Source: Lachnospiraceae bacterium
Lineage (GTDB): Bacteria; Bacillota; Clostridia; Lachnospirales; Lachnospiraceae
Assembly: GCA_021772075.1 (NCBI GenBank)
Contig: JAETNQ010000021.1
Coordinates: forward strand, 1-58,443
DNA: 58,443 nt
Reading direction: 5' to 3'
The notes beneath the pieces are model-generated. The model was not told the DNA's origin. It searched no databases and was given only the letters and a program-made list of their open reading frames with translations. The translations under genes and the position numbers were made by a program. Shown here piece after piece: positions 42,032 to 49,081 of the stretch. Every line of letters begins with the position of its first letter. Position 1 is the stretch's first letter.

Positions 42032-42148
42032 ATGGAAATTTTGATTCTGGGCGGCGGTTTGCTTATTTGTATCATTGCAGTGGTTATATCGGCGGTGACT
42101 TCCGTAGTGTCGGCGGTAGCTGCGAGCGAGGACGAGGAGAACTTTTGA
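42032..42148 (+). CDS. 38-residue single-helix membrane peptide
   Basis: A short frame with AAGAGGT about 9 bases before the ATG. The product is one hydrophobic helix (residues 2-30, with GGG and many Ile/Val/Ala) followed by an acidic tail SEDEENF. It is preceded by an extended -10 promoter. It resembles small regulatory or toxin-like membrane peptides but belongs to no family I recognise. The 215 bases between it and the next gene hold only AT-rich sequence, a short direct repeat (ACTCACTAT twice, about 42267-42288) and a terminator. Confidence 0.5.
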   Translation: MEILILGGGLLICIIAVVISAVTSVVSAVAASEDEENF

Positions 42149-42311
42149 ATTTAATATTATTTTAGATTTAGTTTATGAATGGTTATGAAATTTTATAGGT
42201 TTTTTTAAAACTAAACACATAACGGACACATTTATCACTTATTATTATCTCAGATAGTTGAAGAACTCACTATTTAAAACTCACTATCTCCCCCCTCATA
42301 AGAAAATAAAG

Positions 42312-42346
42312 AAAAAAGCTCCGTTGGAACGGGGCTTTTTTCTTTT
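42312..42346 (+). terminator. Rho-independent terminator
   Basis: An A-rich arm AAAAAAGCTCCGTT pairs with AACGGGGCTTTTTT (one G-U pair) with a minimal loop, followed by TCTTTT. It separates the 38-aa gene from the MutS-like cluster; if transcription enters from upstream it could act as an attenuator for that cluster. Confidence 0.8.
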
Positions 42347-42363
42347 GTAAAAGGAGAGGAATT

Positions 42364-44019
42364 ATGGAAAATCTCAGTCTTTTGTATCCGAGCGGATATG
42401 GTGAGGCTTCGCGTGCCTCGCACCGGATGAAAAATTATGATTTTGTTAAGGAATTGCAGTTAGAATCTTTAGTTGTTCTTGTAAAAGACGGCTATCGGGG
42501 AATGACGAATTTGAAGCTCCAGGATTTTTTCTCAACGGACGAGGAGGTGCTGCGGTACCGGCTGGATATCGTGGAGGACATACTAAAAAATAGAGAATGG
42601 TACGATGTGTTTTGCAAAGCTGTTCCGACGATTCAGAATGTGGCGGATATGCGCCGGTCGATGAACGGGGAATTTTCAGTGGAATCCGCGCTGGGTTCCA
42701 TCCGGTTCCTGGAAATGTACATCGAGATCGTGGATTTGTTTGCAGAGAATATTCTTGTTTTGGAAACAGATTCCAAAGGACTCCGCGCTTTGCAGGATAA
42801 AGTAAGAGAAGTGGCGGAGGGGGAAGAATACCGGAATCTGAAAAAGGAACTTGCCAGAGAAGAAACGAATTTCGGGCTTGTAAAGAGCATAACGCTTGGG
42901 ATCAACTTAGATGAGACGCTGCATGTGCAGGAGGCGGGAATCGTTTCGGTTAATATGGAAAGATTCCATCCGGGAACGGTGATGGATAGGCTTTTGAAGA
43001 AAACAGGCAAAGAAAGCATGTCTTATATGACGCCGCTGTTTTCGATCAATAAGGGGCTGCATATAGGGGATGCGAAAGCGGTGGAAACATCTGCCCGCTC
43101 GGCTTTGAATACAATTTTTGCCCGAACGATCAGGAGCTTCGGCCCTGCGGTGCAAAAATATTTTTCTTTGAATACGTCATGGCTGGTGCAGATACTGGAT
43201 GATATCCGTTTTCTGACGGCCGGCGTAAAGTTTATTCTGGATATGGAAGAAAAGGGATTTTTCTTCTGCAAGCCGGAAGTTGCTCTTATGGATGAGAAAA
43301 AGTGTGACCTGACGGAAGTTTACAATCCGGTATTGGCTGTTAAAGAGGTGGAAAAAACGGTAGTTTCCAATTCTTTTTCCTATGATGAAAGGGGAAGGTT
43401 CTACTTGGTGACAGGGCCGAACCATGGCGGCAAGTCTATTTTTGCTTATTCGGTCGGAATGGCCCAGGCATTGTTCCAGCTGGGGCTGTTTGTGCCGGCG
43501 CGTGCCGCGCGGATTAGTCCGGTGACGGGGATCTTTACTCATTTTCCGGTATCGGATGAGAATAACTATGGAAAAGGAAGGCTGGAAAGCGAGTGCGCCA
43601 GGCTGGGAAAAATCATGGAGGTATTGGAAGATACAGATATCCTTTTGATGGATGAGTCGTTTGCCAGCACAAGCGGAATGGAGGCCGGGTATATTGCTTC
43701 TGAAGTTTTATCCAACATTGGGGTAATCGGATGCGGCGGGATTTTTGTCACCCATATCCATGACCTGACGCAGAAGCTGGAAGAATATAACCATTATCCG
43801 GGAAACAGGGGAAAGATTGATAATCTGGTGGCGCAGATGGAGGACAAGGAGGGCGGCATCCGGAGCTATAAGGTGGAACGGACGACGCCGGATGGATTGA
43901 GCTATGCAAGGGATATTGCCGCGCGCTATGGATTGCTGTGCAGATTGCCCGGCTATGCAGATCATGATATTATGAATTGCGCTGATGCGCAAGCAGGTCA
44001 TCAGCCTGGCGGCTGGTGA
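42364..44019 (+). CDS. MutS-like ATPase lacking the mismatch-binding domain
   Basis: 551 residues. The N-terminal 330 residues are helical and resemble MutS core/lever regions. The C-terminal ATPase has Walker A GPNHGGKS (about 351-358; canonical MutS has GPNMGGKST), Walker B-like DILLMDESFASTS and the signature His in GGIFVTHIHDL. The N-terminal mismatch-recognition domain with its Phe-x-Glu is absent, so a mismatch repair role is unlikely. AGGAGAGG precedes the ATG. It is the first gene of a cluster with VWA, MoxR and LRR genes; MutS-like proteins of this size act in recombination or on other nucleic-acid structures. Confidence 0.85.
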   Translation: MENLSLLYPSGYGEASRASHRMKNYDFVKELQLESLVVLVKDGYRGMTNLKLQDFFSTDEEVLRYRLDIVEDILKNREWYDVFCKAVPTIQNVADMRRSMNGEFSVESALGSIRFLEMYIEIVDLFAENILVLETDSKGLRALQDKVREVAEGEEYRNLKKELAREETNFGLVKSITLGINLDETLHVQEAGIVSVNMERFHPGTVMDRLLKKTGKESMSYMTPLFSINKGLHIGDAKAVETSARSALNTIFARTIRSFGPAVQKYFSLNTSWLVQILDDIRFLTAGVKFILDMEEKGFFFCKPEVALMDEKKCDLTEVYNPVLAVKEVEKTVVSNSFSYDERGRFYLVTGPNHGGKSIFAYSVGMAQALFQLGLFVPARAARISPVTGIFTHFPVSDENNYGKGRLESECARLGKIMEVLEDTDILLMDESFASTSGMEAGYIASEVLSNIGVIGCGGIFVTHIHDLTQKLEEYNHYPGNRGKIDNLVAQMEDKEGGIRSYKVERTTPDGLSYARDIAARYGLLCRLPGYADHDIMNCADAQAGHQPGGW

Positions 44020-44072
44020 CATGTGATAAAATGGAAAAATAGAAAAAGCGAAAGCATAAAGGATGGTAAAGG

Positions 44073-45410
44073 ATGGCAGGAGAAAGGGAGCGGGGAGGAG
44101 AAGAACAGGAGCGGCAGGAAAAAATCGGGGAGCTGGCCGGCCGGGTGATGCAGCTGGCGCGGGACAGCATCGTGGTGAATATGCGTTTTCTGGATGCGGC
44201 CTTGTCCCGGCTGGAAGCCGAGGCGCGCGGCGGGCTGGGGGGAGCCGCGTCAGATGGCGGCAAATTATATTACGACCCGCTTTGGTTATTGAAAAAATAC
44301 AAGGAAGAACCGGGATATCCGGTTCGGTTATATCTTCATGTGCTGCTTCATTATGTGTTTTACCATAGTTATCGTTATGGAGAAAAGGAAGAGGAACAGT
44401 GGGATCTGGCGGCGGATGCCGCCGTGGAAAATGTCATATTGGAAATGGGGCTTCCGATGGGACGGCTGGAAAGCGATGAGGAGGCAAAAAACAAGCTGCA
44501 TTATCTGAAAGAAGATGCGGGGGCGCTGACAGCAGAAAGGATATACCGCTATTTAAAAAATAATGCGCCGACACCGGAAGAAAAGGGACAGTGGCGCCGG
44601 TTATTCTGCAGGGATGCCCATGTATACTGGAAGGAGCAGGAAAAGCTGGAAATCACGCTGGAGCAGTGGAAGAAAATCAGCGAAAGGATAAAAGCGGATA
44701 TCAAGTCTTTTTCTAAAGATAAGAATTCATCGGAAAGCCTGGAAAAAAATCTGGCGGAGGCGACGAGGGACAGATACGATTATGGAGAACTGCTGCGGCG
44801 CTTTACTGTTATGGGCGAAGATCTGCAGGTGAATGACGATGAGTTCGATTATATTTATTATACCTACGGATTGTCGCGGTATGGGGATATGCCGTTGGTG
44901 GAACCTTTGGAATATAAGGATGCCAAAAAGGTGAAGGAGTTTGTCATTGCCATCGATACTTCGGCTTCCTGCCGGGGGGAGACCGTTAAAGCGTTTGTCA
45001 GGAAAACATATTCTATTTTGAAGGGGACGGAGAATTTTTTCCAAAAAATCAACGTGCATATTATCCAATGTGACAGCGATGTCAGAAATGACACAAAAAT
45101 TACCTGCCAGGAGGACTTTGACCGCTTTTTGAAAGAAGGGAAATTAAAAGGTTTCGGTTCCACGGATTTCCGCCCGGTGTTTGAGTATGTGGATCAACTG
45201 GCAGGGAAGGGGGAATTTGAGAATTTAAAGGGATTGATTTATTTTACGGACGGATACGGGGTATATCCTGTGCGGATGCCGGTCTACGATACAATTTTTG
45301 TATTTTTGGACGACAACGGGGAACGGCCTGAGGTTCCGCCTTGGGCGATTCCGGTAGTATTGAATGAAGATGAAATAGAAGGGATGGCTGCCGGAGGGCA
45401 GGAAAGTTGA
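44073..45410 (+). CDS. VWA-like protein with metallopeptidase-like N terminus (COG3864 type)
   Basis: 445 residues. The N-terminal part has HVLLHYVFYH (HxxxH, about residue 90) followed by DLAADAAVENVI, the DUF2201/putative metallopeptidase pattern. The C-terminal part is VWA-like with the metal-ion site DTSAS (about residue 293), then FGSTDFRP and IYFTDGYG. Such proteins are the usual partners of MoxR ATPases. The gene overlaps the MoxR gene by four bases. It may act as a co-chaperone or substrate adaptor, as ViaA does for RavA. Confidence 0.88.
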   Translation: MAGERERGGEEQERQEKIGELAGRVMQLARDSIVVNMRFLDAALSRLEAEARGGLGGAASDGGKLYYDPLWLLKKYKEEPGYPVRLYLHVLLHYVFYHSYRYGEKEEEQWDLAADAAVENVILEMGLPMGRLESDEEAKNKLHYLKEDAGALTAERIYRYLKNNAPTPEEKGQWRRLFCRDAHVYWKEQEKLEITLEQWKKISERIKADIKSFSKDKNSSESLEKNLAEATRDRYDYGELLRRFTVMGEDLQVNDDEFDYIYYTYGLSRYGDMPLVEPLEYKDAKKVKEFVIAIDTSASCRGETVKAFVRKTYSILKGTENFFQKINVHIIQCDSDVRNDTKITCQEDFDRFLKEGKLKGFGSTDFRPVFEYVDQLAGKGEFENLKGLIYFTDGYGVYPVRMPVYDTIFVFLDDNGERPEVPPWAIPVVLNEDEIEGMAAGGQES

Positions 45411-46948
45411 GAATGAATATAAAGCAGGCGAAGGAACATATCAGAAATACGGTGAAATTATACTTAAAAAAGGATGAGTTCGGAGAATACAGGATTCCCG
45501 TGGTGCGCCAGCGGCCGGTTTTTCTGCTGGGAGCGCCGGGAGTAGGAAAAACGGCAGTTATGGAGCAGATCGCCCAAGAACTTGGAATTGCGCTGGTGTC
45601 TTACTCCATGACGCACCATACAAGACAGTCCGCGCTGGGGCTGCCCTTTATCGAGGAAAAAAAATACGGGGAGGAAAGCTGCCGGGTATCGGAATATACG
45701 ATGAGCGAGATCATTGCTTCCATTTATGACGTGATGGAGAAAAGCGGCATAAAAGAGGGTATTTTATTTTTGGACGAAATCAACTGCGTGTCGGAAACTT
45801 TAGCACCGTCCATGCTGCAATTTCTCCAGTATAAGGTGTTTGGCAGACATAGAGTGCCGGAGGGATGGGTAATCGTTACTGCCGGAAACCCGCCGGAATA
45901 TAATAAGTCGGTGAGGGAATTTGACGTGGTGACGATGGACAGGCTGAAGGTTCTGGATGTGGAGGCGGAATACGGCGTATGGAAGGAATATGCGCAGGAG
46001 CGGGGGATCCATAATGTGGTCACAAGTTATCTGGAACTGAAAAAGGAGCATTTTTACCGGATAGAGACTACGGTAAAGGGGCGTTCTTATGTGACGGCGA
46101 GAGGCTGGGAGGATTTGTCCCAGATTCTTTATTTGTATGAAGAAGAAAAGCTGGCGGTGGACGAGGTATTGATTGGGCAATATTTGAGAAATGAGCGGAT
46201 TGTCAAAGAGTTTGCTGCTTATTATGATCTGTACCATAAATATAAAAAGAATTATCATGTGGAAGAGATACTGAATGGGAATGTGCCGGAAGAAGCTGCT
46301 GCCAGGGCAAAAGCGGCGCCTTTTGACGAAAGGCTGTCCCTGCTCAGCATGCTGATGGATATCGTGCTTGGAGAAATAAGGAGAGGAGTGGAAGGCGCTG
46401 ATTATCTGAATGATTTGATGCCTTTATTAAAAGGGTTGAAAAATCTGGCGGAAAAGGAAGCGGATACCGCTGCATTTATGAATACGGACGCATTCATGGA
46501 TATGCTGGAGAGGCAGGAGGAAGCAAAGAGGAAATCGGCGGATTCCCTGCTTCTTGCGAATGCCTTATCCGAGGGGGATAAAAGGAAATACAGGAAAACG
46601 ATCCGCTTTTTGGAGGAGGCGAAGAAGGAACTATATGCCGGGGAGGCAGGAACGGCCCAAGAAGCTTTTTCGCATATCAAGCGGAAGTTTGATATTCAGG
46701 TCAGTGAGATGAAGGAAGCGGTCGGGGAAACGAAGAAGAGGCTTCACCAGTTATTTGAGTTTGTAAAAGAGGCTTTTGGGGAAGAAAATGAGATGCTGGT
46801 TTTGGTGACAGAGCTGACGGTAAATACTTCGAGCGCCCGTTTTATCGGTATGTTCGGCAGCGAGGACTACCAAAAGTATAATGGAAAACTGAGGCTGTCG
46901 GGACGCGGGGAGGATCTGCGCCGTGAGATCGAAAGGCTGGAGTTATGA
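45407..46948 (+). CDS. MoxR-family AAA+ ATPase
   Basis: 513 residues. Walker A GAPGVGKTAV (about 41-50), Walker B ILFLDEINCV (about 121-130), sensor 1 VTAGNPPEYNKS and the lid helix follow. The C-terminal 200 residues are helical and charged. MoxR proteins remodel or activate partner complexes using ATP. Both ends overlap neighbours by ATGA (VWA upstream, LRR downstream), so three proteins are made in coupled fashion and probably work together. Confidence 0.92.
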   Translation: MRMNIKQAKEHIRNTVKLYLKKDEFGEYRIPVVRQRPVFLLGAPGVGKTAVMEQIAQELGIALVSYSMTHHTRQSALGLPFIEEKKYGEESCRVSEYTMSEIIASIYDVMEKSGIKEGILFLDEINCVSETLAPSMLQFLQYKVFGRHRVPEGWVIVTAGNPPEYNKSVREFDVVTMDRLKVLDVEAEYGVWKEYAQERGIHNVVTSYLELKKEHFYRIETTVKGRSYVTARGWEDLSQILYLYEEEKLAVDEVLIGQYLRNERIVKEFAAYYDLYHKYKKNYHVEEILNGNVPEEAAARAKAAPFDERLSLLSMLMDIVLGEIRRGVEGADYLNDLMPLLKGLKNLAEKEADTAAFMNTDAFMDMLERQEEAKRKSADSLLLANALSEGDKRKYRKTIRFLEEAKKELYAGEAGTAQEAFSHIKRKFDIQVSEMKEAVGETKKRLHQLFEFVKEAFGEENEMLVLVTELTVNTSSARFIGMFGSEDYQKYNGKLRLSGRGEDLRREIERLEL

Positions 46949-47913
46949 CTATGACAGGAAAAAACGATGGAACATTCGGCTATAGAGTGGACAGGCAGAG
47001 GGATGGGCAAGGAGAACCCTGGATCGCGATTACGGATTATAAAGGAGGACATGCAGAGGTGCATGTGCCGGAAAAAATAGACGGGCTCTCCGTGAAAGTG
47101 CTGGCAAAAAAAGCTTTTTTGAGCAGAAAAAATCTGAAAAAGGTATTTTTGCCGGAAAGCCTGGAGGAAGTGGGCGATTGGGCATTCGCCTACTGCACAG
47201 GCTTGGAAAGCGTATATCTGCCAAAGAAAAACATAAAATTAGGCAGCGGGGTTTTTATGGAATGTCCCAAAATCAAGACGATCTATGCATATGGAGGAGA
47301 GAGAGAGGAAAGGATGCTGCCTGGCGGGCAAGGAAACAGGGAGGGGGAACGGAAAAAGCAGTCGGACCAGACCGCCGCACTGCTGGCAGCGGCTGTGGCA
47401 TTGGATGCGGAATACTTGCTGGATATGGAAGAAGCCGGGACGGAACAGTGGATAAGGAAATGGGATGCCCGGATGAAGGCAATCATGGAAACGGAAGACG
47501 GGGACGGGTATACGAGAATGATATTATGCGGCGAAGAGGATTATGGATGCAGCCTGGAGGAGTTTATAAAGAATAAGAGAAAAAACAAGGTGCGCCTGGC
47601 TATGCTGCGGCTGCTGAATCCGGTCGGGCTTGCGGAAGAGAACGAAGCTTTATGGAAGAAATACCTCTTGGATCACACTAAGGGATGCCGGTCGGAGGAA
47701 ACCTGGGAGGTGATATGGAAGGAGCATGGCTATGAAGAAGAGTACTTTCAACTTTTTGCCGATATAGGAGGGATAAAGGAAGAGAACTTTGACGGGATGC
47801 TGATCGACATGGGGGAAAATTACGCGGAAATGAAAGCATTTTTTATTAGCTATAAAGAAAGGCAGATGGGCGGAAAAGATTTTTTTGACGATTTGACGCT
47901 GGATGATTGGTGA
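46945..47913 (+). CDS. Leucine-rich repeat (BspA-type) protein
   Basis: 322 residues. Residues 10-110 form an LRR_5 segment with the repeats typical of BspA (EVHVPEKIDGLSVKVLAKKAFLS, LKKVFLPESLEEVGDWAFAYC, LESVYLPKKNIKLGSGVFMEC). The remaining 200 residues are helical and charged with no recognised domain. There is no signal peptide, so it acts inside the cell, unlike most BspA proteins. Translational coupling to MoxR suggests it is a client or a recognition subunit of the MoxR/VWA machine. Confidence 0.85.
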   Translation: MTMTGKNDGTFGYRVDRQRDGQGEPWIAITDYKGGHAEVHVPEKIDGLSVKVLAKKAFLSRKNLKKVFLPESLEEVGDWAFAYCTGLESVYLPKKNIKLGSGVFMECPKIKTIYAYGGEREERMLPGGQGNREGERKKQSDQTAALLAAAVALDAEYLLDMEEAGTEQWIRKWDARMKAIMETEDGDGYTRMILCGEEDYGCSLEEFIKNKRKNKVRLAMLRLLNPVGLAEENEALWKKYLLDHTKGCRSEETWEVIWKEHGYEEEYFQLFADIGGIKEENFDGMLIDMGENYAEMKAFFISYKERQMGGKDFFDDLTLDDW

Positions 47914-47938
47914 TTGGAAGAAGAAAGGGTGCAGGATA

Positions 47939-48163
47939 ATGGATGAAAGGCTGATTGAGGACATCCTGAGACATTTGGACAGCGAGACGCAGATGGGCGT
48001 AATGAGGATGAGCGTGGAAATGGATGAAAAGAGCAGCGGGGATGCCCGGGTTTCGCACAAATGCTGCAATATGTATGGGAGGCCGGCAAATGAAACGGTT
48101 GGGCTTCTGGACAGCTATACGGATCTGAACGCAGGGAGGCCGGACAACGAAAAAATCGAGTAG
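47939..48163 (+). CDS. Small unrecognised protein ending the MoxR cluster
   Basis: 74 residues, starting 25 bases after the LRR gene with GAAAGGG upstream. The first half is an acidic amphipathic helix (ERLIEDILRHLDSETQMGV). The second half has two adjacent cysteines (HKCCNMYG). No family recognised. Its position makes it the fifth gene of the MutS-like/VWA/MoxR/LRR unit. Confidence 0.65.
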   Translation: MDERLIEDILRHLDSETQMGVMRMSVEMDEKSSGDARVSHKCCNMYGRPANETVGLLDSYTDLNAGRPDNEKIE

Positions 48164-48880: not shown

Positions 48881-48885
48881 TTTGA

Positions 48886-48973
48886 CGGAGATGGAGAGAT
48901 TTGAACTCTCGCGCCGGTTGCCCGACCTACCGCATTTCGAGTGCGGACCCTTCAGCCACTTGGGTACATCTCC
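48886..48973 (-). tRNA. tRNA-Ser (anticodon CGA)
   Basis: 88 nt. The acceptor arm GGAGATG/CATCTCC closes. The anticodon stem CCGCA/TGCGG holds the loop CTCGAAA with anticodon CGA (reads UCG). A long variable arm, expected for serine, follows, and the T arm has GAGAGTTCAAATCTCTC. The genomic sequence after the discriminator is TCA, so CCA is added after transcription. Confidence 0.96.
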
Positions 48974-49081
48974 ATAAAAATATTATTATAGATGTAAAGA
49001 ACAGATTTCATTCTATCTTATATTTGCAATTTTATCAAGATGAAAATGTAATTTTTTACGGAAAATATATGAAAACATCAG

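What the first reader, a model, noticed from the sequence alone, without database searches (positions are those of the whole stretch)
42364..48163. MutS-like / VWA / MoxR / LRR / small protein gene cluster
MoxR with a COG3864-type VWA protein is a known pair. Here an upstream MutS-like ATPase without mismatch domain and a downstream cytoplasmic LRR protein plus a 74-aa protein complete a five-gene unit, three of them joined by ATGA overlaps. A nucleic-acid-structure ATPase, a AAA+ remodeller with a metallopeptidase-like partner and a recognition repeat is the composition expected of a conflict or quality-control system; vWA-MoxR ternary systems have been proposed as such.
Basis: partly seen in the sequence, partly recalled or inferred. 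Interest (0 to 1): 0.7.

Follow-up and report, generated by a model that had tools for sequence, protein, structure and literature searches.

The report
Three-part LRR–VWA–MoxR protein-remodelling machine
In Lachnospiraceae bacteria a protein-remodelling motor, a partner that looks like a protease with its cutting residue missing, and a leucine-rich-repeat protein nearly always occur together, so they probably form one uncharacterised three-part chaperone, while the DNA-repair-like gene beside them is a separable neighbour.

Summary
Five ORFs are present, but they are not one five-gene unit. The conserved unit is three genes: VWA (44073-45410), MoxR (45413-46948) and LRR (46945-47913). In 116 related genomes the C-terminal domain of the LRR protein occurs in 40 of 41 genomes with this VWA subfamily and in 0 of 75 without; 25 of those genomes supplied rows to the search profile, and of the other 16 it finds 15. 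Distances among the three proteins correlate at r = 0.97-0.98. The MutS-like gene adjoins the triad in seven genomes of one clade; 34 named loci outside the genus have it without VWA or MoxR in the flanks held. The VWA protein keeps three histidines (HxxxHxxxxH) of a metallopeptidase site but has no catalytic Glu in 57 of 57 proteins examined; canonical COG3864 partners mostly have HExxH. Best reading: an LRR-adapted MoxR/VWA chaperone with a pseudo-metallopeptidase domain, working like NorQ/NorD or RavA/ViaA; client unknown. A conflict role is not supported but not excluded. Structure prediction did not finish, so the mechanism is inference.

The parts
44073..45410 (+). VWA protein (DUF2201_N + DUF2201); first gene of the triad
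   Evidence: Pfam; alignment A1; co-occurrence
44337..44366 (+). HxxxHxxxxH (H89, H93, H98): metallopeptidase-type site without the catalytic Glu
   Evidence: three His in 35 of 35 aligned proteins; no Glu in 57 of 57 window-type proteins with the site, one of which (L308) has Asn for the third His
44955..44969 (+). MIDAS DxSxS of the VWA domain (D295-S299)
   Evidence: invariant in 22 of 22
45413..46948 (+). MoxR-type AAA+ ATPase, 511 aa, longer at its C-terminus than the canonical partners (mostly about 350-375 aa)
46945..47913 (+). LRR_5 + C-terminal-domain protein; third gene of the triad, proposed adaptor
47497..47910 (+). conserved C-terminal domain of the LRR protein (residues 185-322), no credible Pfam match
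47881..47910 (+). aromatic-acidic C-terminal tail (FFDDLTLDDW) of the LRR protein
   Evidence: tail pattern in relatives
47939..48163 (+). 74-aa protein, next to the triad in 12 genus members, elsewhere in the genome in two other genera
42364..44019 (+). MutS-like ATPase (domain V, weak III), lineage-specific neighbour, not part of the conserved unit
42151..42345 (+). conserved noncoding element ending in a terminator (small RNA candidate), upstream neighbour

Best explanation
The functional unit is a three-protein, ATP-driven remodelling machine. MoxR forms the AAA+ ring. The VWA protein is its partner and uses its MIDAS to hold an acidic peptide. The LRR protein is a dedicated adaptor whose repeats bind the client and whose C-terminal domain and aromatic-acidic tail dock on the VWA/MoxR part, possibly as the MIDAS ligand. 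The N-terminal domain of the VWA protein is related to a metallopeptidase domain but lacks the residue needed to cut by the usual mechanism; its three histidines probably still bind a metal, for structure, for gripping a client, or for delivering the metal. The likely job is assembly, activation or metal loading of a client protein complex, as with NorQ/NorD, CbbQ/CbbO and RavA/ViaA. Shown: the triad, its co-occurrence, the missing Glu, the kept histidines and MIDAS, the separability of MutS. Inferred: the complex, the adaptor role, tail docking, metal binding and function. The client is unknown.
For: C-terminal domain of the LRR protein in 40 of 41 genomes with window-type VWA and 0 of 75 without; the exception (G036) has an LRR ORF cut by a contig end. 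Leaving out the 25 genomes that gave rows to the profile: 15 of 16. A search with the window's own LRR C-terminal part alone hit 20 genomes, every one a triad genome. Outside the genus 28 of 29 against 0 of 71. In 59 stretches with window-type VWA or MoxR the domain was found in 51, upstream of VWA or downstream of MoxR in most. Distance correlations 0.974-0.980 over 29 loci and 0.879-0.942 over 18 outside the genus, 0 of 2000 permutations as high. MIDAS and ATPase residues invariant in 22 of 22. Three His kept, Glu absent. 23 of 54 LRR proteins end in [FY][DES][LF] against 3 of 854 other proteins of 200 aa or more from the fetched loci. Several genomes carry two or three VWA-MoxR pairs of this type. 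MIDAS domains bind an acidic residue of the target (PMC9976466, passages); MoxR/VWA pairs remodel targets (PMC7159879 section 8; PMC13036017, passages).
Against: No client gene recurs beside the triad in the neighbours scanned. Of 59 stretches eight lack the LRR domain: five at contig ends (L120, L127, L131, L138, L141) and three not (L291, L303, L309). In four the LRR gene lies 2.9-7 kb away (L129, L134, L290, L295), and in L130 VWA lies about 9 kb from the MoxR-LRR pair. One VWA (L308) has Asn for the third His. The profile was built from proteins found next to VWA, so divergent free-standing relatives could be missed. The proteins and genomes counted are related, so the probabilities are too small. 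The window type is rare beyond the order: 4 of 299 phylum genomes, own genome included.
Confidence: 0.6

Rival explanations
1. The triad is a conflict or defence system of the vWA-MoxR ternary kind, with the LRR protein as sensor of an invader.
For: Patchy presence: 12 of 16 same-genus genomes, 41 of 116 overall. MoxR-vWA ternary systems with other third parts have been proposed as conflict systems (PMC7159879, sections 7 and 8). A marginal Pfam bpMoxR match, 27.4 bits against a cut-off of 27. A few single neighbours match candidate-defence models strongly (PDC-S01 2.6e-151, MzaA 4.7e-68, PDC-S03 7.4e-46; one of 97 each).
Against: None of the four described third components (VMAP, iSTAND, FtsH, beta-propeller) was recognised among the five proteins. 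No effector domain. PADLOC gives the five proteins only weak similarities. No defence family matches more than one of 97 neighbours; no background set was run. The LRR domain is 0.70 identical within the genus, like the C-terminal domain at 0.68.
Confidence: 0.15
2. The five genes are one functional unit in the clade that has them, the MutS-like ATPase having been recruited to the machine.
For: Same order in seven genomes, with MutS to VWA spacings from about -35 to 100 bp in six of them; the seventh (G013) has MutS in two pieces. The MutS-bearing genomes are one side of a branch in the MoxR and VWA trees of 14 rows, support 100/99. Over 116 genomes MutS orthologs and VWA are nominally associated (7 of 41 against 3 of 75, p 0.022).
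Against: One origin only. Five genus members keep the other four genes without MutS; G008 has MutS without a triad. Within the genus p 0.57; outside it 0 of 29 triad genomes have an ortholog.
Confidence: 0.1
3. The VWA protein is an active protease that the LRR protein aims at targets.
For: Canonical relatives carry HExxH, and in jumbo phages the vWA-fused metallopeptidase was proposed to process structural proteins (PMC7824862, passages).
Against: No Glu in the motif in 57 of 57 window-type proteins with the site, while the three His stay in all but one.
Confidence: 0.05

Closest known systems
Canonical COG3864-type pair: MoxR + vWA fused to an N-terminal metallopeptidase (jumbo phages, Clostridia)
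   Same: Same two Pfam domains, same kind of MoxR partner; described for jumbo phages in PMC7824862 (passages).
   Different: Window type: VWA gene first, MoxR about 500 aa instead of mostly 350-375, no catalytic Glu, and an LRR third protein; no LRR-profile match in the canonical stretches examined (many with only 1.5 kb flanks, + strand ORFs of 250 aa or more).
NorQ/NorD, CbbQ/CbbO, RavA/ViaA
   Same: MoxR AAA+ plus MIDAS-bearing VWA; works-like comparison from PMC9976466 and PMC13036017 (passages).
   Different: No client gene recognised alongside; a metallopeptidase-related N-terminal domain; a dedicated LRR partner.
vWA-MoxR ternary conflict systems (VMAP, iSTAND, FtsH, beta-propeller)
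   Same: MoxR, vWA and a third conserved protein (PMC7159879, section 7).
   Different: Third protein is LRR + an unnamed C-terminal domain; no effector modules found.
MutS1, MutS2, KamC
   Same: Shared ATPase domain V.
   Different: Scores 80, 65 and 66 bits against curated cut-offs 480, 400 and 300; not a member of any of them by these models.

Membership tests
vWA-MoxR ternary conflict systems (PMC7159879) | third component is VMAP, iSTAND, FtsH or a vWA-fused beta-propeller | tested here: not met
   no such family in Pfam, NCBIfam or PADLOC scans; definition from section 7. No dedicated VMAP or iSTAND model was searched.
vWA-MoxR ternary conflict systems (PMC7159879) | effector modules among the components | tested here: not met
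   no effector domain in the five proteins
COG3864 MoxR/metallopeptidase-vWA pair | DUF2201_N + DUF2201 over the curated cut-offs | tested here: met
   49.8 and 45.2 bits against 23.2 and 26.4
COG3864 MoxR/metallopeptidase-vWA pair | HExxH metallopeptidase motif | tested here: not met
   HVLLH in the window; no Glu in 57 of 57 window-type proteins with the site
MoxR/VWA chaperones (NorQD type) | Walker A/B in MoxR and DxSxS-T-D MIDAS in VWA | tested here: met
   invariant columns
MoxR/VWA chaperones (NorQD type) | physical complex and remodelling of a client | not testable with these tools
   needs biochemistry; structure prediction unavailable
Anti-phage defence systems in PADLOC | strong match to a system protein | tested here: not met
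   best 1.2e-6 over residues 7-64 of MoxR
MutS1/MutS2/KamC | score over the curated cut-off | tested here: not met

The most novel reading that the evidence does not exclude
A new class of metal-loading or metal-gated chaperone: a relative of HExxH proteases that lacks the catalytic base but keeps all three metal ligands, driven by a MoxR ring and aimed at clients by an LRR protein whose aromatic-acidic C-terminus is the built-in MIDAS ligand, so that client binding switches the motor; paralogous triads in one genome would serve different clients.
Probability: 0.2. Interest if true: 0.75.

Novelty: new variant of a known kind. Interest (0 to 1): 0.5.

Why it matters
MoxR/VWA machines are widespread, yet few clients and no common rule for client choice are known (my understanding of the field, not from a call). 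A triad with its own LRR partner and a protease-type site without its catalytic base gives a testable rule: a separate adaptor chooses the client and its tail tells the motor. It would also give a role to a gene set found in 41 of 116 sampled relatives, and it shows that canonical and pseudo-protease versions can be told apart from sequence. In the held library I found 0 papers with COG3864 and four with DUF2201, seen as listing only. Two combined searches with LRR terms showed none on this triad (20 of 172 listed, 3 of 3 listed). Subscription journals are largely not held, so this is no proof that it is unpublished.

Tried and rejected
Five-gene unit: rejected by the distribution of the MutS-like gene. 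KamC lead (a MutS-type reactivase ATPase named in NCBIfam): the window protein scores far under the cut-off; my paper search listed 15 of 63 papers and none of those titles concerns KamC. Defence island: 97 of 162 listed neighbours from 41 loci scanned; 20 PADLOC families at E <= 1e-10, each matched by one member, some strongly; members not identified further and no background run. Mobile element: the plasmid search with VWA gave five records, 43-47% of the query covered, all under 60% identity; with MutS 43 records, all under 60%; the phage record collection was not searched. The viral scan with VWA gave 274 relatives, best 80 kept, 22-36% identity in the best segment; MoxR gave one distant relative, MutS none. 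Small protein as core: 14 of 41 triad genomes, 0 of 75 others, in two of the 14 at another locus. Riboswitch for the operon: only sub-threshold Rfam matches. Arms-race LRR: not seen.

Rows set aside before counts. Of 44 genomes with a VWA match I set aside three (G054, G084, G096; E 3e-10 to 4e-7) as canonical, from the loci, leaving 41. Of 18 genomes with a MutS match I counted as orthologs the ten with at least 46% identity; the eight others (G044, G056, G073, G078, G096, G099, G104, G110) match at 33% or less, and two of them (G044, G056) also have a triad, on another contig or about 25 kb away. The 20 of 21 count for HExxH was made by eye (L154-L169, L171, L173, L175, L176, L180; L173 has HQxxH; L183-L185 left out as second pieces or copies). 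The 76 of 80 counts HExxH anywhere in the ORF. The 58 VWA proteins include one 147-aa fragment without the site (L131), leaving 57, some cut at the other end. The finding that MutS-bearing genomes are one clade rests on 14 rows; G005 was left out as partial.
Full report
What is there. Five same-strand ORFs lie at 42364-48163: a MutS-like ATPase, a VWA protein with DUF2201_N and DUF2201, a MoxR AAA+ ATPase, an LRR_5 protein and a 74-aa protein. Only MoxR and LRR share an ATGA overlap. The nearest named relative held is Lachnospiraceae bacterium 28-4, whose MutS-like protein is 93% identical.

The five genes are not one unit. I searched single genes in the same 116 related genomes. The MutS-like protein (524 residues, without the repeat-derived end) matches 18 at E <= 1e-20; ten hold an ortholog of at least 46% identity, the other eight only distant relatives. 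VWA matches 44, MoxR 48, the small protein 14 and the window's LRR C-terminal part 20. The five genes stand together in seven same-genus genomes (G000-G003, G012, G013, G015; in G002 the small gene was found by tblastn only, and in G013 MutS is in two pieces). Five other genus members (G004, G005, G007, G009, G010) have the other four without MutS, and G008 has MutS without a triad. A scan of named genomes gave 37 loci with the MutS-like gene. Three are the genus itself; the other 34 (51-68% identity in the best segment) show no VWA or MoxR match in the flanks available, up to 10 kb a side and often shorter at contig ends; two of them (L075, L076) hold a large generic LRR protein. The MutS-bearing genomes are one side of a branch in MoxR and VWA trees of 14 rows (100/99). 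The same noncoding element lies upstream of MutS in six of the seven (the contig of G013 starts at MutS) and upstream of VWA in G007, G009 and G010, so MutS came or went between these neighbours. In G009 another gene (446 aa) lies between element and VWA. In G004 and G005 the element is on another contig.

The conserved unit is three genes. Beyond the genus, the VWA-MoxR pair of this type keeps an LRR_5 protein beside it, upstream of VWA or downstream of MoxR. These proteins share a C-terminal domain of about 130 residues without a credible Pfam match; 22 of 22 scanned have LRR_5. Searching that domain in the 116 genomes gave 40, all with the window-type VWA: 40 of 41 against 0 of 75 (Fisher 1.9e-30, but related genomes are not independent). 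The profile was built from VWA neighbours, 25 of these genomes among its sources; of the 16 other VWA genomes 15 have it. The single-sequence search is free of that circularity: 20 of 20 genomes hit are triad genomes. For MutS orthologs the whole table gives 7 of 41 against 3 of 75 (p 0.022), the genus alone p 0.57, and outside the genus 0 of 29. The small protein occurs in 14 of 41 and 0 of 75. In 59 stretches with window-type VWA or MoxR, 51 hold the LRR domain; of the eight others five are at contig ends and three (L291, L303, L309) are not; in four of the 51 the LRR gene is 2.9-7 kb away, and in L130 VWA is about 9 kb from the MoxR-LRR pair. Pairwise distances of the three proteins correlate at 0.974-0.980 over 29 loci and 0.879-0.942 over 18 outside the genus, with no permutation of 2000 as high.

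A distinct subfamily with a dead protease site. In the canonical loci MoxR (mostly 350-375 aa) comes first, VWA carries HExxH (20 of 21 distinct loci, counted by eye) and no LRR-profile match was seen, though many of these stretches have only 1.5 kb flanks. Among 80 viral loci 76 have HExxH and none an LRR match in + strand ORFs of 250 aa or more. In the window type VWA comes first, MoxR has about 500 residues, and the motif is HxxxHxxxxH: three invariant histidines in 35 of 35 aligned proteins, no Glu in 56 recognised motifs nor in L308, which has Asn for the third His. The MIDAS and ATPase residues are invariant in 22 of 22. In a class sample 21 of 196 genomes match DUF2201_N; in a phylum sample 4 of 299, own genome included, have the window type. 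No window-type copy appeared in the viral searches (best 80 of 274 for VWA; one distant relative for MoxR) or the VWA plasmid search.

The tail. 23 of 54 distinct LRR proteins end in [FY][DES][LF], against 3 of 854 other proteins of 200 aa or more from fetched loci; many of the rest, the window's included, end in related aromatic-acidic strings. MIDAS sites take an acidic residue of the target as the sixth metal ligand (PMC9976466, passages), so the tail is a candidate for a built-in ligand. This is inference; the two structure jobs did not finish. The last helices of the domain look ankyrin-like to my eye; no call shows it.

How it most likely works. By analogy with NorQ/NorD, where the VWA partner docks in the AAA+ ring and is twisted by it (PMC13036017, passages), I propose that MoxR drives VWA, that the LRR protein brings the client, and that the three-histidine domain grips or metallates it. 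Several genomes carry two or three such pairs, most with their own LRR protein (G028 and G067 have a second pair without one detected), as expected if adaptors serve different clients. No neighbour family recurs enough to name the client (97 of 162 listed neighbours scanned; MatE, at 5, is the commonest).

Against a conflict role. The four described vWA-MoxR ternary systems have other third components (PMC7159879, section 7). PADLOC gives the five proteins only weak similarities. Among the neighbours no defence family matches more than one of 97, though a few single matches are strong and no background was run. Within the genus the LRR domain is as conserved (0.70) as the C-terminal domain (0.68); the N-terminus (0.47) and linker (0.25) vary more. 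Patchy presence (12 of 16 in the genus) fits either reading.

Verdict. A new variant of a known kind: an LRR-linked, pseudo-peptidase MoxR/VWA triad. The conflict reading and the inclusion of MutS are not supported by the evidence here.

Noticed in passing
window 42151-42345 (+): Noncoding element, 85% mean column identity in 8 sequences, matched in 16 of 16 same-genus genomes including those without MutS or triad, with an invariant C-rich stretch and a terminator hairpin whose stem, by eye, changes on both sides; shorter matches elsewhere in many of these genomes. Candidate small RNA; only sub-threshold Rfam matches.
   Followed up: partly
window 42032-42148 (+): A 38-aa hydrophobic ORF directly upstream of that element, with similar DNA in relatives; a small membrane peptide or toxin-like gene is possible.
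   Followed up: no
window 43936-44019 (+): The end of the window's MutS-like ORF runs into a sequence found at several other places of the genome, an interspersed repeat.
   Followed up: no
window 42345-42364: Only 18 bp separate the terminator from the MutS start in the window, against about 58-137 bp in five relatives, so the usual promoter stretch may be missing here.
   Followed up: no
window 48884-48974 (-): tRNA-Ser (CGA) downstream of the cluster, before genes that I read by eye as phosphofructokinase, dnaX and recR.
   Followed up: no
L190-L269: Canonical VWA proteins with HExxH are common in IMG/VR contigs (274 relatives, best 80 kept; a MoxR match in the same locus in 59 of 80).
   Followed up: partly
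L045, L046, L047, L049, L050: Distant MutS-like relatives occur as neighbouring pairs in other Clostridia, and as two joined pieces on a few plasmids.
   Followed up: no
L290, L295: A repeat protein that looks TPR-like by eye stands directly upstream of VWA (seen in L177, L178 of the same loci), while the LRR gene lies 6-7 kb off.
   Followed up: no
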